NCBI GenBank assembly: GCA_013178305.1
Contig: JABLXB010000003.1
Location: 124,001-188,000, forward strand
Direction of reading: 5' to 3'
Origin: Bacillota bacterium
Lineage (GTDB): Bacteria; Bacillota; Sulfobacillia; JABLXB01
DNA: 64,000 nucleotides
Positions 11,195-39,137 of the stretch are shown in pieces. Positions within the stretch are counted from its first letter, which is position 1, and each line of letters opens with the position of its first letter. A program made the position numbers and the translations under genes. The notes under the pieces were generated by a model, which saw only the letters and a program-made list of their open reading frames with translations, ran no database searches and was not told the DNA's origin.

Positions 11195-11776
11195 ATGAAC
11201 GAGCCGGGTGTGGCAAAGGAAACCGCGGTCAAGTATGTCGCCAACATTCGTCTCACCTACGAGGATTATTGCCGGATGCCGTCGGGTCACAGGTACGAGC
11301 TCGTCGAGGGGGACATAAGGATGGTACCTTCTCCCACCACATTTCATCAAGAGGTGTCCGGCAGCATAGAGGAAACCCTGCGGGAGTGGGTCAAGGAACA
11401 CGGCCTGGGTAAAGTCTACCATGCCCCTATTGACGTCGTCCTCAGCCAGTACGACGTCGTTCAACCCGACATTCTCTTTGTTTCCCGAGAACGGCTTGGC
11501 ATCGTAAAGAAGGAGAACATACAGGGCGCCCCTGACCTTATGATGGAAATCCTTTCACCGAGCACTGCGGAATGGGATCGGGTCACCAAGCGCAAGCTCT
11601 ACTCGAAGTACGGCGTCCGCGAGTTCTGGCTGGTAGACCCGGATGCACGGACGATCGAGGTGGCCGTCCACACCGGCAGCGACCTTGCAACGGCCCAGGT
11701 ATACCCGTCGGGAACAACCTCGCGCAGCCAGATTCTCAGCGGTTTCTCCCTTGACGTTGACGCGATATTCAGTTGA
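11195..11776 (+). CDS. Uma2 family (DUF820) putative endonuclease, copy 1
   Basis: 193-residue PD-(D/E)XK-fold protein. The core is visible as YELVEGDIRMVPSPTTFHQ, then VVQPDILFVSRERL (catalytic Asp) and APDLMMEILSPST (catalytic Glu), then KLYSKYGVREFWLVDP. ATG 11195 follows GGGGAGGT. The family is abundant in some Cyanobacteria and Bacillota and its biological role is unsettled; nuclease activity is inferred from fold. A second copy follows 40 bases downstream. Confidence 0.88.
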   Translation: MNEPGVAKETAVKYVANIRLTYEDYCRMPSGHRYELVEGDIRMVPSPTTFHQEVSGSIEETLREWVKEHGLGKVYHAPIDVVLSQYDVVQPDILFVSRERLGIVKKENIQGAPDLMMEILSPSTAEWDRVTKRKLYSKYGVREFWLVDPDARTIEVAVHTGSDLATAQVYPSGTTSRSQILSGFSLDVDAIFS

Positions 11777-11816
11777 GCCTGGCCTGAATGGCTCCGCAAG
11801 AAAAGGGGTGTATGAG

Positions 11817-12398
11817 ATGAGCGGGTCCGGCAGAGGAAAGGAAACCGCGGTCAGGTATACCAGTGACATACGCCTCACCTACGATGACTATTGCCGGATG
11901 CCTTCTGGTCACAGGTACGAACTCGTCGAGGGGGACATAAGGATGGTACCTTCTCCCACCACATTCCACCAGAGGGTGTCCAGGAACATACAATACAGGC
12001 TCCTGCGATGGGTTGAGGAACGCGGCCTCGGCGAAGTCTATGATGCTCCCCTGGACGTTGTGCTGAGCCAGCACAACGTCGTTCAGCCGGACATACTGTT
12101 CGTTGCCCGCGAAAGGCTTGGTATTATTACGGAAGACAACATCCAGGGCGCCCCCGACCTCGTCATTGAAATCCTCTCGAAGAGCACTGAAGAGTGGGAC
12201 CGCGTAACGAAACGCGCTGTGTACTCCAAGTATGGGGTGCGCGAGCTCTGGTTCGTGGACCCCTGGTCAAGAACCATAGAGGTCGCGTGCCACACCGGCA
12301 ACGAGCTTGCCACGGTCCAGGTGTATAAGCGGGACACAACCGTGCGAAGCCGGCTTCTCGATGGCTTTCACCTCGATGTTGACGAGATCTTCAAATAA
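11817..12398 (+). CDS. Uma2 family (DUF820) putative endonuclease, copy 2
   Basis: 193 residues, a tandem duplicate of the preceding gene: over the region GHRYELVEGDIRMVPSPTTF the two proteins are identical and the DNA nearly so, while the C-terminal thirds have diverged. Catalytic residues are kept in VVQPDILFVARERL, APDLVIEILSKST and KYGVRELWFVDP. ATG 11817 is used, with AAAAGGGG nine bases upstream; an in-frame GTG at 11808 is possible. It probably shares a transcript with copy 1. Confidence 0.88.
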   Translation: MSGSGRGKETAVRYTSDIRLTYDDYCRMPSGHRYELVEGDIRMVPSPTTFHQRVSRNIQYRLLRWVEERGLGEVYDAPLDVVLSQHNVVQPDILFVARERLGIITEDNIQGAPDLVIEILSKSTEEWDRVTKRAVYSKYGVRELWFVDPWSRTIEVACHTGNELATVQVYKRDTTVRSRLLDGFHLDVDEIFK

Positions 12399-20045: not shown

Positions 20046-20822
20046 GTGTGGGAGCGTGTGAAAGAAGTCTACGCTTACCGCGAAATGCTGCTCAATCTGG
20101 TCGCCAAAGAGCTACGGGCTAAGTATAAGGGTTCGGTCCTGGGTTTCTTGTGGACTTTCTTCAACCCACTCCTCATGCTGACCGTCTACAGCATCGTTTT
20201 CTCATTCATTATGCGGTCGAATATACAGAATTACGCGGTCTTCCTATTTGTGACGCTCCTCCCCTGGAATTACCTGGCCAATTCGGTTCTTCAGGGATCC
20301 GGCAGCCTGGTGCACAACGCCGCGCTCATCAAGAAGGTCTACTTTCCTCGCGAGGTGCTTCCACTTTCTGTAGTGCTGGCCAACCTGGTGAACTATGTAT
20401 TAAGCCTTCTAATCCTGATCCCTGCGTTGCTCATTTCTGGAGTAAGGCTCACCGCTGCTGTGCTTGCCTTTCCTGTGGTGTTGGGCCTGGAGACACTACT
20501 GGCAATTGGCATGGCTTTTCTGGTCGGGGTAGGCAACGTCTACTTTCGGGATCTGCAGCACATCACCGAAGTGTTCGTGACAATGTGGTTCTTCCTCACG
20601 CCTGTCCTGTACTCGTCGGAAATGGTGCCTCCCAATCTGCGAGGATTGTTTGCCCTGAACCCTGCAGTTCCTCTGATTGAGGCATACCGGGAGGTCTTTT
20701 TCTATGGCAGGTGGCCGAACTGGGAGCGCTTGGGCTACCTAGCGTTAGCGTGCGTGGTGTTCCTCTTCGTGAGCGTACGGGTCTTTGACAGGCTTCAGCG
20801 GGCTGTGGCGGAAGAGATATGA
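20046..20822 (+). CDS. ABC-2 type polysaccharide export permease (Wzm/TagG-like)
   Basis: 258-residue membrane subunit of a polysaccharide ABC exporter. The N-terminal interface reads RAKYKGSVLGFLWTFFNPLL, the family signature, followed by about six membrane helices and VGNVYFRDLQHITEVFVTMWF (the second signature). GTG 20046 follows GAAGGAGAAATG. Its ATPase partner is probably the gene at 25300; three other genes sit between them, which is unusual because wzm and wzt are normally adjacent. It would move an undecaprenyl-linked glycan across the membrane. Confidence 0.92.
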   Translation: MWERVKEVYAYREMLLNLVAKELRAKYKGSVLGFLWTFFNPLLMLTVYSIVFSFIMRSNIQNYAVFLFVTLLPWNYLANSVLQGSGSLVHNAALIKKVYFPREVLPLSVVLANLVNYVLSLLILIPALLISGVRLTAAVLAFPVVLGLETLLAIGMAFLVGVGNVYFRDLQHITEVFVTMWFFLTPVLYSSEMVPPNLRGLFALNPAVPLIEAYREVFFYGRWPNWERLGYLALACVVFLFVSVRVFDRLQRAVAEEI

Positions 20823-21109: not shown

Positions 21110-21123
21110 AAGGTGTGCTTGCC

Positions 21124-22494
21124 GTGCATGCAAGAGTGGAATCTTCTTTTAGAGACCCGAGTGGGTTTCTCTTTTTTCGTGACAACGTGCTGTACCGTCA
21201 AGTAAACCTGGTTTACAGGGATCATTACGATCACCTGATTGAGTCTGGACTATACGAGACCCTTGAAGCCAATGGATTGCTCGTTCCCCATGCTGAAGTC
21301 AATCTGCAAGGTAGTGAAAGCGGGCGAGAACGCTACAAGATTATTAGGCCGGAGGTTATTCCGTTCATTTCGTACCCCTATGAATGGTGCTTCAGTCAGC
21401 TAAGGGACGCGGCTCTCACTACTTTGCGCATTCAGAGGATTGCACTCAAACATGGAATGATCCTGAAGGACGCCAGCGGGTTTAACATTCAGTTCATTCG
21501 GGGCAAGCCTATTCTCATCGACACTCTTTCATTTGAGCTGTATCGTGAGGGCCTACCCTGGGTAGCGTATAGACAGTTTTGCCAGCACTTTCTCGGCCCC
21601 TTGGCTCTGATGGCCCGTCGGGACGTTCGGCTTAGCCAGATGCTGCATATTTTTATGGATGGCATTCCGTTGGATTTGACTAGTCGTCTGCTTCCAGCCA
21701 AGACATGGGCGAGTTTTCCACTGCTTTCTCATCTTCATATCCATGGACTGATGCAGAAGAGTTCTGAGCATCAGAAGGTAGACACCAAGACAATCAGCCG
21801 CAAAGGCCTGCTGGCCATTATTGACAGCCTAGAATCCGCGGTCCACGGCCTGAGGTGGGAACCGTCCGGGACAACCTGGAGTGACTACTACGAGAGAAAC
21901 CTTGGGTATACAGGAGAGGGACTGGAATTAAAGAAACGATTTGTGGCTCAGTCATTGGAGCACATTGGCCCGAAGTCCGTCTGGGATATTGGCGCAAATA
22001 CCGGCGTCTTTAGCCGGCTCTCCGCCAGCCGCGGAATACTCACCGTCTCCATGGACAGTGACCCAGCAGCCGTTGAAAGAAACTACTTGACATGTAAAGA
22101 GCGGAATGAATCGTACATACTGCCTCTCCTTGTCGACATAAGCAACCCCAGTGCGAACATAGGATGGGACAATAGGGAACGGATATCGCTCTTTGACAGA
22201 GGTTCTCCCGACGTAATCTTAGCCCTAGCACTGGCTCATCACCTGGCAATCAGCAATAATGTTCCTTTCGCCAGGATAGCTGAGTGTTTTGCCGGACAAT
22301 GCAGATTCCTCATAATAGAGTTTGTACCCAAAGATGATCCCAAGGTTCAGGAGTTGTTGAGAAACAGGGAAGATGTCTTCACAGACTATCGGCAGGAGGC
22401 ATTTGAATACGAATTTGGCAAGTTCTTTAGTACAGTATGCTTTGCCCGGGTCCCGGACTGTAAGAGAATCCTCTATTTGATGCAGAGGAAATAG
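21124..22494 (+). CDS. SAM-dependent methyltransferase family protein
   Basis: 456-residue protein. The N-terminal half (to about 260) has conserved blocks such as RPEVIPFISYPYEWCFSQLR and GMILKDASGFNIQF, with LIDTLSFE, typical of a group of large methyltransferases in polysaccharide loci. The C-terminal half is a Rossmann methyltransferase with the SAM loop VWDIGANTGVFSRLSA and acidic MDSDP. GTG 21124 is preferred (AGAAGG ten bases upstream); GTG 21115 is possible. Codon use is AT-richer than in the housekeeping flank. Substrate unknown; a sugar O-methyl group is a reasonable guess. Confidence 0.75.
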   Translation: MHARVESSFRDPSGFLFFRDNVLYRQVNLVYRDHYDHLIESGLYETLEANGLLVPHAEVNLQGSESGRERYKIIRPEVIPFISYPYEWCFSQLRDAALTTLRIQRIALKHGMILKDASGFNIQFIRGKPILIDTLSFELYREGLPWVAYRQFCQHFLGPLALMARRDVRLSQMLHIFMDGIPLDLTSRLLPAKTWASFPLLSHLHIHGLMQKSSEHQKVDTKTISRKGLLAIIDSLESAVHGLRWEPSGTTWSDYYERNLGYTGEGLELKKRFVAQSLEHIGPKSVWDIGANTGVFSRLSASRGILTVSMDSDPAAVERNYLTCKERNESYILPLLVDISNPSANIGWDNRERISLFDRGSPDVILALALAHHLAISNNVPFARIAECFAGQCRFLIIEFVPKDDPKVQELLRNREDVFTDYRQEAFEYEFGKFFSTVCFARVPDCKRILYLMQRK

Positions 22495-22512: not shown

Positions 22513-25068
22513 ATGTCCAAAATCAGGTTCTACAAGCAGTATGGTGAGACTGCTCTTGTTGCATGCACTTGTGTATCTACATTTCTGTTATTCACCCCAC
22601 TCTATGTATACTGGACTAATGCTGGGGAATGGTCGTTCTCTATTCGCGATGTTCTTGGCCTACTCATTGGTGTTACAGTAACAACTAGTCTGCTAACAAC
22701 AATTCTATTATCAAGACTCAAAGGCTCCGCTTTTGGAACTGTGAAACTAGTGTTGGTCGGCGCGACATTCTTGTCGTGGCTGGAAGGGAATATTCTCCTA
22801 AAGAGTTACGGCGTAGTAGACGGTCGACAGATACAATGGCACGAGTTTGGTGCTCAGAGTTGTATCGATGCTCTTATATGGGCAGTCTTTCTAATTGTTT
22901 TGTATCTCGCCCGCAAGCATTTCCTTAGAGTGGCGAAGGAAATCAGTATAGGACTACTCTTGGCTCAGGCTGTCTTGATTATCTCGGCATATGTGAACGC
23001 GCCTGCAGAACCTGGCTGGAACGGCAGTGTAGGTGAGGCCACCAAGTTCCAGTTTTCCACTACGAAGAATGTCATAGTACTGGTTCTCGATGCGTTTCAG
23101 ACAGACATCTTCCAGGAGCTACTAAATGAGAATCCCAATTATCTAGGTATCTTCCAGGGTTTCACTTATTTCCGCAATGCCGTCGGCGGGTTCCCTACCA
23201 CCTATCCTTCAATTCCCTTGATTCTTACAGGCCAGTATTACGACAATTCACTCCCTATAACTGACTTCCTGGAGAGCGTCTACACCTCCGAGTGCCTTCC
23301 CAGGATACTGAAAAGGGAAGGTTATCGGATCGAGTCATACTCGTTTTCCGGGCAGCCTATACGCCACTATGAAGACTATATGAGTCCGGAGCGAATGGGA
23401 ACAAGCCTAGGGGCGAAAATCGGAGCGCTCGGTGACCTGTGGTCTGCTGCTGCATACCGAAATGCTCCCGGTCTTCTAAAAGCAAGCCTTCATGAGAACT
23501 TGAGCCAGAGGCTACTGATGCCCGTAACCAGATCGAACTTGAGTTTTGCCCAGGAAGCCTCCAACGTTGCAGTCACATGTGATAAACCAGTGTTTAAGTT
23601 CTTTCATTTGGGGGGAGCACACCCGCCATTCTATCTGAACGAAGAACTGGAAATCAAGGACCTGGGTTACACTCGTGAAGCCTACAAGACTCAATCGCGA
23701 GCGATGCTAGAGATCATTCGGAGGTTTCTAGTGGCCTTAGACGCGGCCGGGGCATATGACAACTCTCTCATTTTTGTCGTCGGGGATCACGGCGGGAGTG
23801 GTTTTGGCGTGAATCTGGCGGCGAGCGGCTATCCTGGTCCTCATGGCCGAACAGGTATCATTAGTTCTAGCACAATCAGCCCGGGGCTCCCGCTTGTTCT
23901 GGCAAAGCCCTTTTCGCGCAGGGGGGCACTGAAAGTATCGGACGCACCTGTATGTCTGTCGGATATACCCAAGACGGTGACATCAGTGCTGGGCCTCGAA
24001 TCTGAGCTTCCTGGCCGTTCGATGTTCGAAGTAGCGGAAACAGATGTGCGAAAGCGCAGGTTCTTGTGGTACGGATGGGAACACAGTTACTGGCTCAGAA
24101 ACTATCTTCCCGAGATGCAAGAATATGAGATTGACGGCTTCAGCTGGCTAACCCGATCATGGACACCGACGCACCGAAGGTTTACCCGCAGCGGGATTGA
24201 AGTGCTGGAGCCACCTGTATATCAGTATGGTTCGGAGATTCGGTTTGGGGAGGGAGGAAACGCAGAGCACTACCAAGGAGTGGGGTGGAGTCTGCCTGAA
24301 GAAGGGTTCACATGGACAGAAGCAGAGACTGCGTCACTTTTGATGCCTGTAGGGCCGTCCAGATCCGACCTTGTATTGAAGGCGACGCTGTTTCCTTTCG
24401 TAGCAGGAGGTTTGGACAAACAGAAAGTCGAGATCTACGTTGGCGAGGAGAGACTAGGTGAATGGCTAGTAAGAGACTCCGGTGAGTACCAGATGGTGAT
24501 ACCGAAAGAGTGTGTCAGAGATCCATTAAGGATAGACTTTGCGTTGCCAGGATGTGTCTCTCCAAAGGAGTTGGGTGTAAGCAGCGATTTGCGGACATTG
24601 GGAATCGCAATGAGATCTGTGACCGTTCTACAGGTGCCCGAATACGAATATGGTTCGGAGATTCGGTTTGGAGAGGGAGGAAATGCAGAGCATTACCAGG
24701 GAATGGGGTGGAGTCTGCCTGAAGAAGGGTTCACGTGGACAGATGGGGAGAGTGCATCACTCTTGATACCGATAGACCCATCCCAATCCGATGTTGTATT
24801 GAAGGCGACGTTGTCTCCTTTCATAAAGGGAGATATCGATAAACAGAGAGTTGAGATCTACGTCGGTGAAGATAGACTTGGTGAATGGGTGGTAGCGAAA
24901 CCCGGGGAGTACGAGATCGTAATACCTGAGGCATTGGTGAGGGACTCTCAGTTGGCGATACACTTTGAACTACCGGATTCCATCTCACCTGCGGTGTTAG
25001 GGATCAGCAGTGACGGTCGAGACCTGGGCATCGCCTTCCAGTCTCTGACGATTACGGCGGGGAGATAA
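22513..25068 (+). CDS. Membrane sulfatase/phosphotransferase-fold protein with duplicated C-terminal domain
   Basis: 851 residues. Four or so N-terminal membrane helices (to about 175) precede an alkaline-phosphatase-superfamily domain: VIVLVLDAFQTDIF (metal Asp), FPTTYPSIPLILTGQYYD (likely Thr nucleophile), HLGGAHPPF, FVVGDHGGSGFG (metal site). This architecture resembles phosphoglycerol or phosphoethanolamine transferases that decorate surface polymers. From residue 572 two copies of a roughly 141-residue domain follow (YGSEIRFGEGGNAEHYQG, GWSLPEEGFTWT), probably a beta-sandwich glycan module. Base composition is AT-rich relative to the flank. Substrate not inferable. Confidence 0.8.
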   Translation: MSKIRFYKQYGETALVACTCVSTFLLFTPLYVYWTNAGEWSFSIRDVLGLLIGVTVTTSLLTTILLSRLKGSAFGTVKLVLVGATFLSWLEGNILLKSYGVVDGRQIQWHEFGAQSCIDALIWAVFLIVLYLARKHFLRVAKEISIGLLLAQAVLIISAYVNAPAEPGWNGSVGEATKFQFSTTKNVIVLVLDAFQTDIFQELLNENPNYLGIFQGFTYFRNAVGGFPTTYPSIPLILTGQYYDNSLPITDFLESVYTSECLPRILKREGYRIESYSFSGQPIRHYEDYMSPERMGTSLGAKIGALGDLWSAAAYRNAPGLLKASLHENLSQRLLMPVTRSNLSFAQEASNVAVTCDKPVFKFFHLGGAHPPFYLNEELEIKDLGYTREAYKTQSRAMLEIIRRFLVALDAAGAYDNSLIFVVGDHGGSGFGVNLAASGYPGPHGRTGIISSSTISPGLPLVLAKPFSRRGALKVSDAPVCLSDIPKTVTSVLGLESELPGRSMFEVAETDVRKRRFLWYGWEHSYWLRNYLPEMQEYEIDGFSWLTRSWTPTHRRFTRSGIEVLEPPVYQYGSEIRFGEGGNAEHYQGVGWSLPEEGFTWTEAETASLLMPVGPSRSDLVLKATLFPFVAGGLDKQKVEIYVGEERLGEWLVRDSGEYQMVIPKECVRDPLRIDFALPGCVSPKELGVSSDLRTLGIAMRSVTVLQVPEYEYGSEIRFGEGGNAEHYQGMGWSLPEEGFTWTDGESASLLIPIDPSQSDVVLKATLSPFIKGDIDKQRVEIYVGEDRLGEWVVAKPGEYEIVIPEALVRDSQLAIHFELPDSISPAVLGISSDGRDLGIAFQSLTITAGR
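24226..25068 (+). repeat. Tandem intragenic duplication, 423-bp period
   Basis: Copy 1 begins at 24226 and copy 2 at 24649, both with TATGGTTCGGAGATTCGG. The first ~90 bases are almost identical; identity falls towards the ends of the units. They encode residues 572-712 and 713-851 of the membrane sulfatase-fold protein. Confidence 0.92.
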
Positions 25069-25299
25069 GGGGACCGGTAGTACTGATCACGTTTGAGCAA
25101 GTGATGGAAAGCGATTGGGTACACCGCGACCCCGGGATTTGCCAAGACTGCTCCCCGTGGCACCAGACGCTGCAGCAGGTCTGAACGCGGAACCGAGGCG
25201 GAAGGTGATCCCGGAGGATTCGTCAAATAACGACCTGGTACTGAAGAAGGCAGACCGGTTACACTCAGTCGCATAGAGGTACTACTCGGAGTGGTGGTC
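25069..25299. other. Gap without recognised gene
   Basis: A 231-base gap between the sulfatase-fold gene and the ABC ATPase gene. No promoter of good quality, hairpin terminator or coding sequence was recognised; it may hold a decayed gene end. Confidence 0.5.
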
Positions 25300-26055
25300 T
25301 TGACGTCTATTGAAGTCAAAGATGTATGGAAGAGATTCCGGCTCTACCATGATAGGGCCTCCAGCCTTAAAGAACACTTCATATTCTGGGCCAGGCAGAC
25401 GGCTGAGGACTTTTGGGCGTTGAAGGGTATCAACCTCGCAGTATCCGAGGGAAGCACGGTAGGCCTTATAGGGAGGAACGGTTCGGGGAAGAGCACGTTG
25501 CTGAAGATAATCAGCCGCATACTCTATCCGACACGGGGAGAAGTCACGGTGAACGGCCGGGTTTCCACTTTGCTTGAACTCGGGGCCGGTTTCCACCCCG
25601 ACTTCACTGGCCGGGAGAATGTTTTCTTGAACGCCTCGATCCTAGGTTTGACTCGCAGCCGAACCAGGGAAAGACTGGATGACATCATTGACTTTGCCGA
25701 GATGGGCGACTTCATCGATAACCCCGTGCGCAACTACTCGTCTGGCATGTTTACACGCCTCGGGTTTGCTGTAGCCGTGCATGTTGACCCGGACATCCTG
25801 CTTGTCGACGAAGTACTGGCTGTGGGCGACCTGGCATTCCAGGAGAAGTGCCTATCCAAGATAAGAGAATTGCAGAAGAAAGGCACTACCATCATGTTTG
25901 TCACTCACTCCCCGCAACAGTTGGAAGAACTGTGTGATCAAGCCATATGGCTTGACAGGGGGGAGGTTAGAATGCTGGGGCCAGCCGGAGAGGTGGCCCG
26001 TGCTTATAAGCAAAGTGTGGAGCGCGGCCAAGTGTCCATGGCAGTGAGTGGATAG
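25300..26055 (+). CDS. ABC transporter ATPase for polysaccharide export (Wzt/TagH-like, short form)
   Basis: 251 residues from TTG 25300 (CGGAG eight bases upstream; GTG 25291 is possible). Walker [10 protein letters not shown] at 58-66, ABC signature [12 protein letters not shown], Walker [13 protein letters not shown], switch [27 protein letters not shown] is typical of Wzt/TagH/KpsT exporters. The protein ends about where the nucleotide-binding domain ends, so the C-terminal carbohydrate-binding domain of Wzt from O8/O9a-type systems is absent. It probably pairs with the permease at 20046. Confidence 0.93.
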
Positions 26056-26137: not shown

Positions 26138-27118
26138 TTGTTAAAGAGAGCGTTGATCACCGGTATCACCGGCCAGGATGGTGCCTACCTGGCTAAGTTC
26201 TTGCTGGACAAAGGATACCGGGTTTATGGAGCGTTTCGCCGTTCCAGCACTATCCATCTGGAGCGTCTCCACTATTTGTGTATCGCTGACAAAGTGGATC
26301 TCGTAGCTCTCGATCTTCTCGATCTGGGGAACGTAATTCGCGTGCTGCAAACAGTGCAGCCTGATGAGGTCTACAACCTGGCTGCCCAGAGCTTCGTGGC
26401 TGTCTCGTTTGACCAGCCGTTGGTGACGGGAGAAATCACTGGACTGGGGGCGGCCAGGGTACTCGAGGCGATCCGGATCGTAAACCCCGGCATAAGGTTC
26501 TACCAGGCCTCTTCCAGTGAGATGTTTGGCAAAGTGCAGACAGCTCCACAGAATGAGAGAACCCCTTTCTACCCGCGCAGTCCCTACGCGACTGCCAAGC
26601 TTTACGCTCACTGGATGACAGTGAACTACCGGGAAGCGTACAGCATCTTTGCCTGCTCTGGCATTCTATTTAACCATGAATCACCTCTGCGAGGCCTCGA
26701 ATTCGTGACCAGAAAGATTACCCATACGGCGGCGCAAATCGCACACGGCCTCGCAAAGGAGCTGCACCTCGGAAACCTCCAGGCCAGACGGGACTGGGGA
26801 TACGCCCCTGAGTATGTGGAAGCCATGTGGTGTATGCTTCAGCAGCCTGACCCGGATGACTACGTAGTTGCCACTGGTGAGGCTCACAGTGTGGGCGAAT
26901 TCGCCCGCGAAGCCTTCGCCCTGGTAGGACTGGATTGGCGGGATTATGTGGTGGAGGACCCTGCGTTCTACCGTCCGGCGGAGGTGGAACTCTTGACAGG
27001 CGATGCTACTAAAGCGCGGGAAAGGCTGGGCTGGCAGCCACGCACCGGCTTTAAGGAGTTGGTCCGCATTATGGTGGAATCCGACTTGAGAAGGGTAGAA
27101 GGACAGTGCGGGCGCTAG
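26138..27118 (+). CDS. gmd: GDP-mannose 4,6-dehydratase
   Basis: Short-chain dehydrogenase/reductase-family enzyme turning GDP-D-mannose into GDP-4-keto-6-deoxy-D-mannose. TTG 26138 is chosen: GGGGGAGAG precedes it and the product then begins [20 protein letters not shown], the family N-terminus with the NAD(P) loop TGITGQDG. Catalytic residues lie in ASSSEMFGK and YATAK (Tyr-x3-Lys); NHESPLRG and [14 protein letters not shown] are diagnostic. 326 residues, slightly shorter than the enterobacterial enzyme. It overlaps the reductase gene by 13 bases. Confidence 0.93.
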
Positions 27119-28080
27119 TTACTGGCGCGAACGGGTTCGCCGGCCGTTACCTAGTAGGTTTTCTAATGGGGAAAGGGTATGCTGTCTTAGCTGCCTGCCA
27201 TGGCCAGCAACGTGAGGATGCTCTCGGGGCAGGTGTACTCGTGCGGCAACTAAACGTAACAGACAGGGAGAACCTGCTCCACGTGATAGATGAGTTCTTG
27301 CCGGATGAAATCTACCACCTTGCCGGTATTGCTGCGACCACAGGAGAAGACCGGGAGCGCTATTACGAGGTCAACTTCAAGGGCACCTTGAACCTGTTTG
27401 AGGCCGTCCGCGAAGCCGCCCCACAGGCACGGGTACTCTATGTCGGCTCCGCAGCTGTGTACGGTGATGTGTCGTTGGAGGCACAACCGATCACTGAGGA
27501 GTGTTCGTTTGCCCCGGTCAACCATTACGGTGCCAGCAAGGCCGCTGCTGATCTACTTGCGTTCACCTATGGTGCGGAAGGTCTTTACCTCGTTCGGGTT
27601 CGACCCTTCAACCACACCGGCCCCGGCCAGAGCACCGCCTATGTCTGTTCACGGTTAGCCCGAAGCGTGGCAGAGGTAGCCTTGTGCCTTGGAGAGCCCG
27701 TCATTACTGCTGGGAATATTGACGCAGCCCGCGACTTCACGGATGTCCGGGATGTGGTCTGTGCTTATTGGTTGCTTCTGCAGCGCGGCTCCCCTGGCGA
27801 GGCCTACAACGTCTGCAGTGGCAGGGCGTATACCGTCAGAGAGATTACCGGTTTTCTGGCCCAAGTCGCGGGGGTGGAAGTGGAACTTAAGTCCACTGCC
27901 GAGCTCCGCCGCCGAATTGACATTCCTCTGCTCGTGGGTTCAGCGGAGAAGATACGGCGCGCCACCGGGTGGCAGCCGGAAATTCCTATCTGCCAAACTC
28001 TGGGGGACCTGTTCGAGTGGTGGCGTGGAAGGCTTTTATCAGATTCTTCATGTAGGAGTCCCGAGTCTAGCCACGCCTGA
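27106..28080 (+). CDS. rmd: GDP-4-keto-6-deoxy-D-mannose reductase (Rmd type)
   Basis: 324-residue NAD(P)-dependent epimerase/reductase. The N-terminal loop is [12 protein letters not shown], the active site VGSAAVYG with YGASKAAAD, and [10 protein letters not shown] is the substrate block typical of Rmd and RmlD/GDP-sugar reductases. GTG 27106 overlaps gmd. Paired with Gmd, the most likely product is GDP-D-rhamnose. GDP-L-fucose synthase is less likely because the protein resembles Rmd more than WcaG; GDP-D-talomethylose cannot be excluded. Confidence 0.85.
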
Positions 28081-28167: not shown

Positions 28168-29727
28168 ATGGGTGAAGATCCTGTCGTCGAGGCGATAAGA
28201 AGAGACATTGAAGAGCTCCTGGCGGCAAAGAAGGCAGGCCAGCTCACTTCGATCGAGGTATCCAACCCAGGTAGCCCCGGCATGATGGAGGAAATCCAGG
28301 GGTGGCTTGACCGTGCAGCCGGCCAGTCTCAGGTGGACATAAACCGTGTCCCGGTGCGCTCCACTCGCCCTTTCTGGGGGCCGCTTATTACCATTTACAA
28401 GCGGCTCGTTCGCAAGAGCACCTATTGGCTCTACCAGCCGCTCTTTGGGCAAATAGCGACTTTTCACAGCACACTTCTTGAAGCCTCGGCCCGTCTCGGT
28501 GGGTGGCTGGAGGAGACAAGGAACCACGCCCGGACACAGTCTGGCACCATAGCCTCGGAGTTAGAGCAGTTTAGGACTTCCGTTTTTGCGCATAAGGCGG
28601 AAGTGGAGAATAGGGTGGCCGAGACAAGAGGCGTCGTGGCTTCCCTGATGGATGAACAGGCCCAGCTGAAAGGCGCCGTGGCTTCCCTGATGGATGAACA
28701 GGCCCGGCTGAAAGGCGCCGTGGCTTCCCAGGTGGATGAACAGGCCCAGCTGAAAGGCGCCGTGGCTTCCCTGATGGATGAACAGGCCCAGCTGAAAGAT
28801 GGGGTCAGTGAGCTCCAGCAATGCGTTGCCTCCATCGCGGGCGATAGGACCGGACTCCAGCGGGAAATCCTTGAGGTGACTCGGGCTCAGGCAGGAAACG
28901 TGTTGCAGGAACTGACTAGCCTCCGGAGTCAGGTCGAAGACTACCGGACCGAAACGGCCTTCCTGCGGGCAAAGATGGCACTCGCTGTGCAGCGCCTGGC
29001 GACAAGCAGGCTACATGTTACTACAGAAGTCGGCTTGCCGAAAGCGGCGGAAGTAGCTGATGCGGAGCTTCAGGACGAGGCCTGGCTATACCACGCCTTC
29101 GAGCAGTATTTCCGGGGGCCGGAGACGCTCATCAGAGAGCGCCAGCGCGCCTACCTTCCCGATGTCCAGAAAGCCCACGCGGCTTGCCGCGGCTCGGTGC
29201 TCGATGTGGGGGCCGGACGGGGCGAATTCCTGGAACTCTGCCGCGAGGCCGGGATACCCGCCGAAGGTGTCGACCTGAACGACGCGATGGTCGCGCGTTG
29301 TCGCGAAAAGGGGCTTGAGGTGTCAAGAGCTTGCGGTCTTTCTCACCTGCGCAGCCTTCCCGACGAGAGCCTCTGTGCGGTGACCGCCTTCCAGGTGGTG
29401 GAGCACCTGCGCCCCGCACAGCTCTGGCAGATGGTACAAGCGGCTCTGGTTAAGATTCGCCCCGGTGGTCTATTGATCCTAGAGACGGTGAACCCACACA
29501 GCCTCGCTTCTTTGATGGACTTCTACCTGGACCTGACCCACGAAAGGCCCGTTCCGGCTCCCACCTTGCGCTTCCTTGTGGAGGCGGCGGGCTTCAGGGA
29601 GGTCCAGGTGCGTTTTTCTTCACCTTGCCCTGAGGAAGGAAGTCTCCAGGGCGAAGAGGATAGCGTCAAGAGGCTTAACGTCCTCCTCTTCGGTCCACAG
29701 GATTATGCGGTGATGGGGTGGCGGTGA
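28168..29727 (+). CDS. Methyltransferase with N-terminal repeat-built coiled coil
   Basis: 519 residues from ATG 28168 (GGAGGGGGAAG upstream). The N-terminal part (about 60-110) has the membrane-proximal block RPFWGPLITIYKRLVRKSTY seen in many polysaccharide-locus enzymes. Residues ~110-300 are predicted coiled coil, including four 14-residue repeats (VASLMDEQAQLKGA, residues 157-212). The C-terminal ~185 residues are a Rossmann methyltransferase with SVLDVGAGRGEFLELC and FQVVEHL. Layout resembles chain-terminating enzymes such as WbdD, where a coiled coil sets polymer length, but no kinase domain is present. Whether it methylates the chain end is inference. Confidence 0.8.
   Translation: MGEDPVVEAIRRDIEELLAAKKAGQLTSIEVSNPGSPGMMEEIQGWLDRAAGQSQVDINRVPVRSTRPFWGPLITIYKRLVRKSTYWLYQPLFGQIATFHSTLLEASARLGGWLEETRNHARTQSGTIASELEQFRTSVFAHKAEVENRVAETRGVVASLMDEQAQLKGAVASLMDEQARLKGAVASQVDEQAQLKGAVASLMDEQAQLKDGVSELQQCVASIAGDRTGLQREILEVTRAQAGNVLQELTSLRSQVEDYRTETAFLRAKMALAVQRLATSRLHVTTEVGLPKAAEVADAELQDEAWLYHAFEQYFRGPETLIRERQRAYLPDVQKAHAACRGSVLDVGAGRGEFLELCREAGIPAEGVDLNDAMVARCREKGLEVSRACGLSHLRSLPDESLCAVTAFQVVEHLRPAQLWQMVQAALVKIRPGGLLILETVNPHSLASLMDFYLDLTHERPVPAPTLRFLVEAAGFREVQVRFSSPCPEEGSLQGEEDSVKRLNVLLFGPQDYAVMGWR
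28636..28803 (+). repeat. Four 42-bp tandem repeats inside the coiled-coil methyltransferase gene
   Basis: Units begin at 28636, 28678, 28720 and 28762, each starting GTGGCTTCCC. Each encodes 14 residues, exactly two heptads, so gain or loss of a unit keeps both reading frame and coiled-coil register. Units 1 and 4 differ only at the end; unit 2 has one Gln-to-Arg change, unit 3 has LM changed to QV. Confidence 0.95.
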
Positions 29728-29728
29728 G

Positions 29729-30778
29729 ATGCGGGTCGCAATTGCCACGGTACAAGTTCCTTTCATCTGGGGTGGAGCGGAATACCTTGCTGCGGAACTG
29801 CAAAAGGCCCTGGAGCGGGCAGGCCACCGGGCCGAGACGGTGACGATTCCATTCAAATGGTATCCGCCCGAGCGGATCCCGGAGCACATTCTGGCAGCTC
29901 GCCTATTTGACCTGACCGAGAGCTGCGGCATCAGAGTGGACCTTCTCATTGGCCTCAAATTTCCGGCCTACTGTTTCCACCACCCTCGGAAAGTGCTCTG
30001 GATCCTGCACCAGCACCGGCAGGCCTACGACCTTTGGGGCACGGAATACTCTGACCTTCACCTGTCCCCGCAGGGAGACCAGGTGCGGGAGGCGATCTTT
30101 AAAGCGGATAACCAATACTTGAGGGAAGCAGTGCGAGTCTTCACCATAAGCCGCAATGTCAGTGCGCGTCTGCAACGGCACAATGGGATTACCTCTACCC
30201 CTCTCTACCACCCGTGCCCACATGCGGAGGAGTTCTCTTGCGAGGCGTTCGAACCGTACGCCTTCTTCCCAAGTCGCCTTGATCAGATGAAACGGCAGCA
30301 CCTGGTGATTGAGGCGATGCGGCACGTCAAGACGCCCCTGAAACTATGTCTTGCCGGCAGTGCCGCTACGCCCATGTACCTGGAACAGTTGCAGGACCTC
30401 ATCTGCCGCTACCGGCTTGAGGAAAGGGTCAAGATCATGCATCGTGTTACGGAAGAGGAGAAGCGCGCACTCTACGCCCGCTGCAGGGCCGTGGTCTTCC
30501 CGCCCTATGATGAAGACTACGGCTACGTTACGCTGGAGGCCTCTTACGCCAGCAAGGCGTTAATCACCTGTCGGGATAGCGGGGGGCCACTGGAGTTTGC
30601 TCACGACCGGGACACAGGAATGGTCTGTGACCCCACACCTGAGGGATTGGCTGAGGCCATGGACTACCTGGGAGAGTCCGAGGAAAGGGCGAGGGAGATG
30701 GGGAAAAGGGCGAGGGAGGCGATCCTGGCCATGGGGCTCTCCTGGGAGCGCGTGGTGAAGGAGCTGACTGCACTGTGA
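29729..30778 (+). CDS. Glycosyltransferase, GT4 family
   Basis: 349-residue GT-B enzyme. The N-terminal loop VPFIWGGAEYLAAEL is followed by the C-terminal donor domain with FFPSRLDQMKRQHLVIEAM and the acidic motif YDEDYGYVTLEASYASKALI. It starts one base after the methyltransferase stop, so it is cotranslated with it. Donor and acceptor are unknown; GDP-linked rhamnose is the likely supply in this operon. Confidence 0.88.
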   Translation: MRVAIATVQVPFIWGGAEYLAAELQKALERAGHRAETVTIPFKWYPPERIPEHILAARLFDLTESCGIRVDLLIGLKFPAYCFHHPRKVLWILHQHRQAYDLWGTEYSDLHLSPQGDQVREAIFKADNQYLREAVRVFTISRNVSARLQRHNGITSTPLYHPCPHAEEFSCEAFEPYAFFPSRLDQMKRQHLVIEAMRHVKTPLKLCLAGSAATPMYLEQLQDLICRYRLEERVKIMHRVTEEEKRALYARCRAVVFPPYDEDYGYVTLEASYASKALITCRDSGGPLEFAHDRDTGMVCDPTPEGLAEAMDYLGESEERAREMGKRAREAILAMGLSWERVVKELTAL

Positions 30779-32121
30779 GGATCGCGTGGTTTAGTCCTCT
30801 TCCCCCTTTGAAGTCGGGGATCAGCGAATACAGTGAGACAGTCGTCTATGAATTAAGAAAGCATGCTGTGGTCGATTTGTGGGTCGAAAACATCCCTCAA
30901 CTGCGTTTCTGCCGGGATTTCCGCGTGTACAACTACGGGGAGCGCTCCGAGCTTCTGCCACTGCTTGAGACCTACGACGCGATTGTCTACAACATGGGCA
31001 ACAATGCGGAATTCCATGCGCAAATGTATGATGTCTTGCAGGTTCACCCGGGCATAGTCATTCTTCACGACTACGTCCTTCACCACTTTTTCGCGGGCTA
31101 CTTCCTGGACAAGAGGCGTAACTCGGCGTCCTACATACGGGAAGTCCACGAGCAGTATGGGGCCGAATCTGCAGACTTGGCAAGGAAATGTCTGGAGGAC
31201 GGGAAGCCCCTTTGGGAGAGGGAAGAAGTCTTTCATTATCCCCTTAATAGGACGGTCTTAGATCGCGCCCGCGGGTTGGTAGTCCATTCGGAATACGCAA
31301 GAGCAATGCTGAGAAAACAGGCCGACAAGAGGCCCGGCCTGACGACTAAGAAGATTGATCAACCGGTTTCTCCGCTGTCGCGGCAGCACCACAGCGGATC
31401 AAGGGAAGAACTTGGCCTACCTAAAGACAAGATAATTGTGGCGTCTCTCGGCTTCATAACCCCGTCGAAAAGGCTGCACAAGGTAATAGGGGCCGTCGCT
31501 GAAGACAGGTTCTTGAGAGAAAGAGTCGTCATCTTGGTCATTGGCGAAAGCATCTCGCCGGATTACCGGCTTGAAGCGTATGCTACGAAGTATGGCATTG
31601 CACCAGTCGTCAGGATGTTGGGGTATTTACCCATAGAAGCAGCCTATGCCTATCTCAGATGCGCGGACATATGCGTGAACCTGCGTTACCCTACCATGGG
31701 TGAAACAAGCAGCAGCCTGATCAGGATTATGTCCTTGGGCAAGCCGACCCTAGTCTCCAACGTCGGGTGGTATGCAGATCTCCCCGATGACTCCGTTGTA
31801 AAGATCGACCCGCTGAACGAGGAAGAGGGGTTGACATCTTGGCTACGACGCCTAGTGTCTGATGGCGAGCTGCGGGATAAGATCGGCGAAACGGCGAAGG
31901 CATACGTTGAGAGAGAACACTCATTGGAGAAGTTCGTTCGGGAGCTTTGCGAATTCATCCAGGAAACTGGTGCTGAGGGAAGCAGTCTCTACATCCGCGT
32001 CTTAGATAGGATTACGGACACCTTGAATGAGCTTGGCCAGGGGGCCGATCTTGTTCTCCCTCACCTTCCGGCGCATCTAGCGTGGCTTTACCTGGAAGGA
32101 GGAAAACGTAGGGCACTCTAG
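30775..32121 (+). CDS. Glycosyltransferase, GT4 family
   Basis: 448 residues from GTG 30775, overlapping the previous stop by four bases. N-terminus RIAWFSPLPPLKSGISEYSE is typical of GT4 enzymes; the C-terminal half has VASLGFITPSKRLHKVIGAV and the donor-site region YPTMGETSSSLIRIMSLGKP, where the usual EGFGLPxLE motif is replaced by GETSSSLIR. The long C-terminal tail (from about 390) is not typical. Substrates unknown. Confidence 0.85.
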   Translation: MRIAWFSPLPPLKSGISEYSETVVYELRKHAVVDLWVENIPQLRFCRDFRVYNYGERSELLPLLETYDAIVYNMGNNAEFHAQMYDVLQVHPGIVILHDYVLHHFFAGYFLDKRRNSASYIREVHEQYGAESADLARKCLEDGKPLWEREEVFHYPLNRTVLDRARGLVVHSEYARAMLRKQADKRPGLTTKKIDQPVSPLSRQHHSGSREELGLPKDKIIVASLGFITPSKRLHKVIGAVAEDRFLRERVVILVIGESISPDYRLEAYATKYGIAPVVRMLGYLPIEAAYAYLRCADICVNLRYPTMGETSSSLIRIMSLGKPTLVSNVGWYADLPDDSVVKIDPLNEEEGLTSWLRRLVSDGELRDKIGETAKAYVEREHSLEKFVRELCEFIQETGAEGSSLYIRVLDRITDTLNELGQGADLVLPHLPAHLAWLYLEGGKRRAL

Positions 32122-37423: not shown

Positions 37424-38641
37424 GTGCAGCGAGTATCGATAATAATCCCAGCATACAATGAAGAAGCAGGTATTCAGCCTACACTACAAGAACTCAGGGA
37501 AGCCCTTGCTGGGGATTCCACCGAAATCATCGTAGTGGACGACGGCTCTACGGATAAGACTGCTCAACTTGCCCAAGGCTTGGCCGATAGGGTGGTTAGT
37601 CACGCCACAAACCGCGGCAAGGGTGCGGCAATGCGAACAGGCTTCGAAGTGTCCAATGGGGAATGCATTGTTTTCCTGGATGCTGACGGAACCTACCCAG
37701 CCATGTTCATCCCGTCCATAGTCCGGAAGCTCGAAGAGGTGGATGTGGTATTTACCTGCCGTACAAACAGGGAACACATTCCTCTTCTTAATCGATTTGG
37801 CAACTGGCTCATTACAGGGTTGATCAAGAGGTTTTCTGGATTCATAGGTAACGACCCTCTCTCGGGGCTGTATGGTCTGAGACGCGAGGCGCTTAAAGCA
37901 ATAGGGTTAGAGTCTTCAACGTTTGCCATCGAAACGGAGATCGTCGTAAAGGTAAGTGGAATGAGATTCTCTGCCGCAGAGATACCAATAGCCTACCGTA
38001 GTCGCCTGGGTTTGACAAAACTGCGCCCGTTTCGGGACGGATGGCGAATACTGCGTGTCCTCGTTGACCTGCTATTCATCTTCAGGCCAGTCTTGACCTT
38101 TACTCTGCCTGGGTCAATCATAGCTCTAATCGGATTGTGTTTCGCCGGTGTACTGACCGTCAAAGGGGCCATTCATCTTGACCACGTCCGCCTGAGCCTG
38201 CACACCTTCTTGACCAGCCTGACCCTCATACTTCTCGGGGCCAACACGGCGTTTTACGGCATCATAATTGACCTTTACGCGGTACGTCACCGGTTCAAGA
38301 AACCGTCGCGGGTCACCCGCACGCTCGCAAACACTTCTGTCTATACGGGCACGCGCAACTTCAGTCTCTTTCTCGTTTGTCTTAGCGTGCCAATTCTGGG
38401 GTACCATTTCATGTGCTGGCAACGTGGCGGGTACGGACCCTTCGTGGCCACCAGAAGTTGGATGCTCTCACTAACCGGGTTCCTTCTCGGGCTGCAAGGA
38501 GTCTACACAAGCATCATTGGAAAAGTCTTTGCCAAGGATTGCCTGGAGGCGGATGCTATTGCGGGAAAGGTGGACGCTCTGGGATCAAATGATCGCCAAC
38601 ATGCGTTATGCGAAGGTAAGAAGACTGGTACCTGCCGGTAG
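37424..38641 (+). CDS. Polyprenyl-phosphate sugar synthase-like GT2
   Basis: 405-residue enzyme with a cytosolic GT2 domain (VSIIIPAYNEEAGI, VVDDGSTDKT, FLDADGTYPA) and two or more C-terminal membrane helices (FTLPGSIIALIGLCFAGVL and LTLILLGANTAFYGIIIDLYA), the layout of dolichyl/undecaprenyl-phosphate mannose or glucose synthases. GTG 37424 has GGGGTGG before it; GTG 37397 is possible. It would supply a lipid-linked monosaccharide to a GT-C enzyme such as the protein encoded upstream. Its 3' end overlaps the next gene by 89 bases. Confidence 0.85.
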   Translation: MQRVSIIIPAYNEEAGIQPTLQELREALAGDSTEIIVVDDGSTDKTAQLAQGLADRVVSHATNRGKGAAMRTGFEVSNGECIVFLDADGTYPAMFIPSIVRKLEEVDVVFTCRTNREHIPLLNRFGNWLITGLIKRFSGFIGNDPLSGLYGLRREALKAIGLESSTFAIETEIVVKVSGMRFSAAEIPIAYRSRLGLTKLRPFRDGWRILRVLVDLLFIFRPVLTFTLPGSIIALIGLCFAGVLTVKGAIHLDHVRLSLHTFLTSLTLILLGANTAFYGIIIDLYAVRHRFKKPSRVTRTLANTSVYTGTRNFSLFLVCLSVPILGYHFMCWQRGGYGPFVATRSWMLSLTGFLLGLQGVYTSIIGKVFAKDCLEADAIAGKVDALGSNDRQHALCEGKKTGTCR

Positions 38642-39137
38642 TGTACTCTGCGATCTTGGCTGTGGCCCTGATGGGCGTTTTCTGCAGGCACTACTAGATT
38701 CTGGAACAATCAGCAAGGGCTACGGATTCGACCGGAACGTTGACCGGGTGAGGGAGAGGGGAGAGATGGTGTTGTCCCCCCTGGACCTGAATAGTGGTAT
38801 TCCCTTGCAGGGTGCAAGCATCGACTGCGTTACCATGCTGGCGCTGCTAGAGCATCTGAGCAAACCTGCTGCGGTGATTGAAGACGTTTTTCGGGTTCTG
38901 AAGCCGGGCGGGAGAATCATCCTTACCACTCCTAGTCCTTGCTCGAAAGCGCTACTGGAATTCTTGGCTTTTCGTCTTCAGTTGATCTCCGCTGAGGAGA
39001 TACGAGACCACAAACGCTACTATTCCGAAACAGATCTCCGAGCGCTGTTGGGTGACAAAAGTTTTACAGGCGTTGTCTACAAGAGGTTCCAGTTTGGGTT
39101 GAACCAGCTCGTGGCCGCGAGCAAACCTGCAACATGA
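38553..39137 (+). CDS. SAM-dependent methyltransferase, type 11
   Basis: 194-residue class I methyltransferase: SAM loop VLCDLGCGPDGRFLQ, MLALLEHL and VLKPGGRIILTTPSP. ATG 38553 is used since GGAGG ends four bases before it; this makes it overlap the GT2 gene by 89 bases in another frame. It is the last plus-strand gene of the locus and meets the minus-strand genes after a 65-base convergent gap without an obvious terminator hairpin. Substrate unknown. Confidence 0.82.
   Translation: MLLRERWTLWDQMIANMRYAKVRRLVPAGSVLCDLGCGPDGRFLQALLDSGTISKGYGFDRNVDRVRERGEMVLSPLDLNSGIPLQGASIDCVTMLALLEHLSKPAAVIEDVFRVLKPGGRIILTTPSPCSKALLEFLAFRLQLISAEEIRDHKRYYSETDLRALLGDKSFTGVVYKRFQFGLNQLVAASKPAT

What the first reader, a model, noticed from the sequence alone, without database searches (positions are those of the whole stretch)
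28636..28803. Coiled-coil ruler made of in-phase 42-bp tandem repeats
Four near-identical 42-bp units encode 14 residues each, exactly two heptads, inside the coiled coil of a polysaccharide methyltransferase. In WbdD of E. coli O9a the coiled coil length sets O-antigen chain length. Here unit number could change by slippage or recombination without breaking frame or register, which would give a genetically adjustable molecular ruler.
Basis: partly seen in the sequence, partly recalled or inferred. Interest (0 to 1): 0.66.

Follow-up and report, generated by a model that had tools for sequence, protein, structure and literature searches.

The report
Repeat-built coiled-coil spacer on sugar-capping enzyme
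A bacterial enzyme that probably caps growing surface sugar chains has a rod-like spacer lengthened by four near-identical 14-amino-acid blocks, and relatives in other microbes have gained or lost such blocks in whole coiled-coil repeats, so the length of this presumed molecular ruler changes by duplicating DNA units.

Summary
The array is real: four in-frame 42-bp units (28629-28798, 94% match), unique in the genome, absent from codon-shuffled controls, and in register with the coil on its 3' side. It lies in a long predicted helix between an N-terminal anchor-like segment and a C-terminal methyltransferase 40% identical to that of E. coli O8 WbdD. The protein is not WbdD itself: domain order is reversed, there is no kinase, and the neighbouring Wzt lacks the glycan-binding domain that nearly all linked Wzt of relatives carry. 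All 80 relatives found share the reversed layout. The closest orthologues lack the array; without it the window's spacer (177 residues) matches three of theirs (166-174). A control coiled-coil family had 1 of 30. One E. coli O8 genome of 303 carries an exact 156-bp coil duplication; sampled O9/O9a coils never vary. Ruler function here and within-strain switching remain untested. New variant of a known kind.

The parts
28168..29727 (+). Coiled-coil methyltransferase (CC-MTase) gene, probable start ATG 28168 (519 aa); longer ORF from 28084 (547 aa)
   Evidence: Open frame; start chosen because orthologues L043/L188/L189 share the N-terminus (M)xxEDPVIQxIKRDIEELL there
28348..28464 (+). Conserved anchor-like segment VPVRSTRPFWGPLITIYKRLVRKSTYWLYQPLFGQIATF, basic and hydrophobic; proposed membrane or polymerase docking end of the spacer
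   Evidence: Best conserved stretch outside the MTase among Bacillota orthologues, with a degenerate version in distant members; docking function is inference
28423..29016 (+). Coiled-coil spacer (two long predicted helices)
   Evidence: AlphaFold2 helices 86-206 and 217-283 in model numbering; heptad hydrophobic contrast
28629..28798 (+). 42-bp x 4.0 in-frame tandem array (14 aa = two heptads per unit)
   Evidence: TRF; unit comparison; shuffles; unique in genome
29086..29727 (+). SAM-dependent methyltransferase domain, putative chain-capping domain
   Evidence: Pfam Methyltransf_23 2.3e-14; PDB 3dli 1.7e-44; E. coli O8 WbdD 39.8% over 216 aa, 9.7e-36; Foldseek 3dli top
20046..20822 (+). Wzm-type ABC-2 permease
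   Evidence: Pfam PF01061 4.3e-15
25291..26055 (+). Wzt-type ABC ATPase, 254 aa, without the C-terminal glycan-binding domain Wzt_C
   Evidence: Pfam PF00005 without PF14524; no Wzt_C in the whole own genome
26048..27118 (+). GDP-mannose 4,6-dehydratase (GMD)
   Evidence: NCBIfam gmd 1.1e-131, above cut-off
27106..28080 (+). NAD-dependent epimerase/reductase, possibly GDP-4-keto-6-deoxymannose reductase (RMD-like)
   Evidence: Pfam GDP_Man_Dehyd 6.4e-55; 66% to the neighbour in Desulfovirgula; exact activity is inference
29729..32121 (+). Two glycosyltransferase genes directly downstream (29729-30778, 30775-32121), candidate polymerase partners
   Evidence: Pfam Glycos_transf_1; same order CC-MTase, GT, GT in L044 and L060

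Best explanation
The gene encodes a chain-capping enzyme of an ABC-transporter-dependent surface glycan (perhaps a deoxyhexose glycan made through GDP-mannose dehydratase). An N-terminal anchor-like segment holds one end at the membrane or at the polymerase; a parallel coiled coil acts as spacer; the methyltransferase sits at the far end and methylates the chain end once the chain is long enough to reach it. This is the WbdD ruler logic with the polypeptide order reversed (anchor-coil-cap instead of cap-coil-anchor). The 4 x 42-bp array is a recent in-frame expansion that lengthened the spacer from about 177 to 233 residues (about 26 to 35 nm if fully helical, about 2.1 nm per unit). Because each unit is two heptads, gain or loss keeps frame and register, and in part of this enzyme family spacer length changes in such quanta. 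Shown: array, predicted helix, methyltransferase homology, cluster context, absence from the closest orthologues, whole-heptad copy-number differences between sister species of relatives. Inferred: capping, anchoring, oligomerisation, ruler action, any effect on glycan length, slippage or recombination as the cause.
For: Array and register. Helix. MTase homology to O8 WbdD; alignment. Family: 80 of 80 genome relatives have the MTase at the C-terminus; 44 of 80 loci contain Wzt, 41 directly upstream. Closest orthologues lack the array; anchor-to-MTase distances 77, 166, 168, 174, 219 against 233 here (177 without the array). Cyanobacterial homologues: 13 of 30 with arrays, all with a basic period of 42 or 63 bp, 1.9-13.1 copies. 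Sister pairs at 96-98% DNA identity: only coil gap 42 bp (L124/L125), 336 bp = 8 units (L138/L140), 21 bp (L129/L131), none (L127/L128); the 13-copy array lies in a single 4.50-Mb contig. Arrays in 7 of 80 relatives against 6 of 706 neighbouring ORFs (Fisher p about 9e-5) and 13 of 30 against 1 of 30 for Wzz/GumC coiled-coil proteins (p about 4e-4). A natural exact 156-bp duplication in E. coli O8 WbdD coil, 1 of 303 genomes. Literature: coil length sets chain length in E. coli O9a, and coiled-coil terminators are widespread in ABC-dependent glycans (PMC5082667, PMC11231755).
Against: No glycan-length data for this organism or for any reversed-order homologue that I found. The Wzt partner lacks Wzt_C, so cap-dependent export as in O8/O9a is unlikely here. 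E. coli O9/O9a coils do not vary in the sampled genomes, and O8 varies in one genome only. In more distant relatives the periods are not all heptad multiples (27, 33, 45, 66, 180 bp), and the O8 duplication is 52 aa (52 mod 7 = 3). Helix confidence drops at the 3' end of the array. Neutral drift of a spacer would give the same DNA pattern.
Confidence: 0.55

Rival explanations
1. The coiled coil is a tolerant linker or oligomerisation rod. Tandem units expand and contract by slippage or recombination, and selection only removes changes that break frame or register; length has no tuned effect on the glycan.
For: Copy number and unit sequence differ between close species; coil length ranges 77-233 aa among Bacillota orthologues; some arrays are not heptad multiples; no chain-length data.
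Against: Enrichment over another coiled-coil family of the same cyanobacteria (13/30 against 1/30) suggests something specific to this spacer; length is invariant in E. coli O9/O9a, where length is known from the literature to matter.
Confidence: 0.3
2. A contingency locus: unit number switches within a population at high frequency and gives cells with different glycan lengths.
For: Near-identical units without synonymous differences suggest recent expansion; an 8-unit difference between sister species.
Against: Only one assembly per species was available and no reads; E. coli O8 shows one event in 303 genomes, far below contingency rates; 42-bp imperfect units are not the usual short-repeat type.
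Confidence: 0.08
3. The methyltransferase methylates internal sugars or another substrate and is not a terminator; the coil only tethers it to the glycosyltransferases.
For: A second methyltransferase gene lies in the cluster (38517-39137).
Against: 40% identity to the O8 WbdD methyltransferase; gene order Wzm-Wzt-CC-MTase-GT in many relatives, 43 of 44 of their Wzt with a C-terminal extension.
Confidence: 0.2

Closest known systems
WbdD of E. coli O8 / K. pneumoniae O5 (methyl terminator)
   Same: Homologous methyltransferase (39.8% over 216 aa), no kinase, coiled coil separating it from an end region, linked to Wzm/Wzt and glycosyltransferases
   Different: Methyltransferase is N-terminal and coil C-terminal in O8 WbdD, reversed here; O8 Wzt is a 404-aa protein, whereas this Wzt has 254 aa and no Wzt_C; no array of short heptad units in O8
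WbdD of E. coli O9a / K. pneumoniae O3 (kinase-methyltransferase ruler)
   Same: Proposed ruler logic: catalytic domain held away from the polymerase by a coiled coil
   Different: No kinase here, no significant methyltransferase similarity by BLAST, reversed order; O9/O9a coil length invariant in the sampled E. coli
WsaE of Geobacillus S-layer glycan synthesis (PMC2943079)
   Same: Methyl cap of an ABC-exported glycan in a Gram-positive; the window also has an SLH protein and an O-antigen-ligase-like protein
   Different: WsaE is reported as an N-terminal methyltransferase fused to two glycosyltransferase domains; here the methyltransferase is C-terminal and no glycosyltransferase is fused
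Wzz/PCP chain-length regulators
   Same: Chain-length control involving coiled-coil proteins of surface glycans
   Different: No Wzz domain, no catalytic similarity, different pathway type; rarely carries tandem arrays (1 of 30)

Membership tests
WbdD-type coiled-coil chain terminator | Methyltransferase domain homologous to WbdD | tested here: met
   39.8% identity over 216 aa to O8 WbdD, 9.7e-36; not to O9 WbdD
WbdD-type coiled-coil chain terminator | N-terminal catalytic domain followed by coil and C-terminal anchor | tested here: not met
   Order reversed in the window protein and in all 80 relatives
WbdD-type coiled-coil chain terminator | Extended coiled coil between catalytic and anchoring ends | tested here: met
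   Predicted helices 86-206 and 217-283, heptad pattern; oligomer not modelled
WbdD-type coiled-coil chain terminator | Amphipathic membrane helix and polymerase recruitment site | not testable with these tools
   A conserved basic-hydrophobic segment exists at the other end of the coil; binding needs experiment
WbdD-type coiled-coil chain terminator | Partner Wzt with C-terminal glycan-binding domain that reads the cap | tested here: not met
   No PF14524 in the own genome; Wzt 254 aa; Desulfovirgula Wzt also short, 245 aa; 43 of 44 Wzt linked to other relatives carry an extension of 120 aa or more
WbdD-type coiled-coil chain terminator | Coil length sets glycan chain length | not tested
   Needs glycan analysis of length variants
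WbdD O9a kinase-methyltransferase | Kinase domain | tested here: not met
   No kinase family in Pfam and NCBIfam scans, and no second folded domain in the model
Contingency (phase-variable) repeat locus | Unit number varies within a species or culture | not testable with these tools
   One assembly per species and no reads; sister species of relatives vary

The most novel reading that the evidence does not exclude
A widespread, undescribed family of reversed-polarity chain terminators whose coiled-coil rulers are written in heptad-phased DNA tandem repeats, so that glycan length evolves in discrete, register-preserving steps by unit duplication and loss.
Probability: 0.35. Interest if true: 0.78.

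Novelty: new variant of a known kind. Interest (0 to 1): 0.58.

Why it matters
How chain-length rulers of bacterial glycans change in evolution is open; engineered WbdD coils show that length matters, but I found no described natural length series. Here sister species carry nearly identical terminators that differ by one heptad, one unit or eight units. These are natural experiments for the ruler model, outside the enteric bacteria in which it was built, and they test it with the domain order reversed.

Tried and rejected
A scan of genome contigs with the window protein alone found nothing; an alignment-based scan worked. The 36-mer of the unit is absent from viral contigs. The own class (154 genomes) holds only methyltransferase-only or differently fused proteins, no array-bearing orthologue. 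RmuC was tried as a coiled-coil control but is missing from the cyanobacteria; Wzz was used instead. WbdD membership was rejected because tested features fail. A mod-7 count of anchor-to-motif distances across the cyanobacteria (12 of 27 at 0, 9 at 3) is suggestive but confounded by ancestry, so it is not used as proof. The Wzz control loci hold about 600 of some 740 residues each. Assembly collapse cannot be excluded for the draft genomes, so copy numbers there, the window's included, may be too low. Literature searches found no paper on this layout or on heptad-unit variation in glycan terminators, but only open-licence papers are held. An archaeal family search failed for lack of a genome handle.

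Full report
Observation. The array is as described: 28629-28798, period 42, 4.0 copies, 94% matches, no indels. Codon-phased units start at 28636, 28678, 28720 and 28762. The first three differ by 1-3 nt, all amino-acid changing, and the fourth diverges in its last five bases. Codon-shuffled ORFs never exceeded a score of 67 against 312, and the unit is found nowhere else in the genome. Each unit is 14 residues, two heptads. The best a/d register is the same in the array and the 3' flank; from about residue 159 onward overlapping windows keep it too, although the 5' flank as a whole (141-184) fits another register.

Protein. The gene probably starts at 28168 (519 aa). AlphaFold2, with 28 homologues, gives a long helix (86-206), a break of low confidence, a second helix (217-283) and a confident methyltransferase. 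The methyltransferase is closest in the PDB to 3dli and is 40% identical to E. coli O8 WbdD. There is no kinase. Between N-terminus and coil lies a conserved basic-hydrophobic segment (KRLVRKSTYWLYQPLF), a degenerate form of which recurs in distant members.

Surroundings. Wzm, Wzt, GDP-mannose dehydratase, a related reductase and glycosyltransferases surround the gene, and an SLH protein and an O-antigen-ligase-like protein lie further on. The window Wzt has 254 aa; the own genome has no Wzt_C domain. The closest Wzt, from Desulfovirgula, is also short (245 aa, 79% identical). In other relatives 43 of 44 linked Wzt carry a C-terminal extension, and one that was scanned is Wzt_C. So the cap may terminate chains here without being read by Wzt.

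Family. An alignment-based scan of one genome per species returned 80 loci from Bacillota, cyanobacteria, Acidobacteriota, Proteobacteria, methanogens and others. All 80 have the methyltransferase at the C-terminus, nearly all behind a long N-terminal region; Wzt lies in 44 loci, directly upstream in 41. E. coli O8 WbdD is the reverse: methyltransferase first, coil second.

Origin of the array. Five Bacillota orthologues, with 56-76% identical methyltransferases, lack it. Anchor-to-methyltransferase distances are 166, 168 and 174 in three of them, 219 in another and 77 in Pelotomaculum; in the window 233, or 177 without the array. The array therefore accounts for nearly all of the difference from the three nearest in length.

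Unit-number variation. Arrays occur in several separate lineages: 45 bp x 4.9 in Methanoperedens, 33 bp x 7.5 in a euryarchaeote, 180 bp x 2 in a Methanomicrobiales archaeon, 42 bp x 3.5 in Brasilonema. In 30 cyanobacterial homologues, 13 carry arrays, all with a basic period of 42 or 63 bp, from 1.9 to 13.1 copies. Sister species give the clearest evidence: L124/L125 (97.5% DNA identity) differ in length only by 42 bp; L138/L140 (96.7%) by 336 bp in the coil, eight units; L129/L131 (96.2%) by 21 bp; L127/L128 not at all in the coil. L138 lies in a single 4.50-Mb contig. Controls: 6 of 706 neighbouring ORFs and 1 of 30 Wzz-family proteins of the same cyanobacteria have comparable arrays. These counts are not corrected for shared ancestry.

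E. coli as the best-sampled comparison. Of 303 genomes with O8 wbdD, the full-length matches listed (59 rows) all span 1278 bp, and a junction probe finds one genome, ECONIH4 (plasmid pECO-5e72), with an exact 156-bp in-frame duplication in the coil. A Serratia plasmid carries the same junction. In O9/O9a the 48 listed full-length matches all span 817 bp, even at 87.5% identity. So known rulers do duplicate in nature, but rarely, and their length is otherwise held constant.

Interpretation. The best reading is a chain terminator that works like WbdD with reversed polarity and whose spacer grows and shrinks by heptad-phased units. Capping, anchoring and ruler action are inferred from homology and from published work on WbdD (PMC5082667, PMC11231755). 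The main rival is a tolerant linker under selection only for an intact coil. A within-population switch has no support yet.

Novelty. [quoted passage not shown] I found no description of the reversed layout, nor of heptad-unit copy-number variation, in the open-licence library; subscription papers were not searchable.

Noticed in passing
window 22513-25068: Sulfatase-fold membrane protein with two 69%-identical C-terminal repeats of about 140 aa, between Wzm and a Wzt that lacks Wzt_C; the repeats could be a separate glycan-binding module (speculation).
   Followed up: partly
window 25291-26055; L187:12032-12766: Wzt of the window and of Desulfovirgula lack the Wzt_C domain although both are linked to a CC-MTase.
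   Followed up: partly
L040:2831-4264: Natural exact 156-bp tandem duplication in the coiled coil of plasmid-borne E. coli O8 WbdD (pECO-5e72), shared with a Serratia marcescens plasmid and absent from the other E. coli O8 genomes.
   Followed up: yes
L138 (G241:C1:293898-297914): Cyanobacterial CC-MTase with 13.1 copies of a 42-bp unit at 97% identity; its congener L140 has 4.9 copies.
   Followed up: yes
window 21115-22494: 459-aa protein in the glycan cluster without any Pfam match.
   Followed up: no
window 11195-12398: Two adjacent paralogous ORFs, similar over most of their length (11195-11776 and 11643-12398).
   Followed up: no
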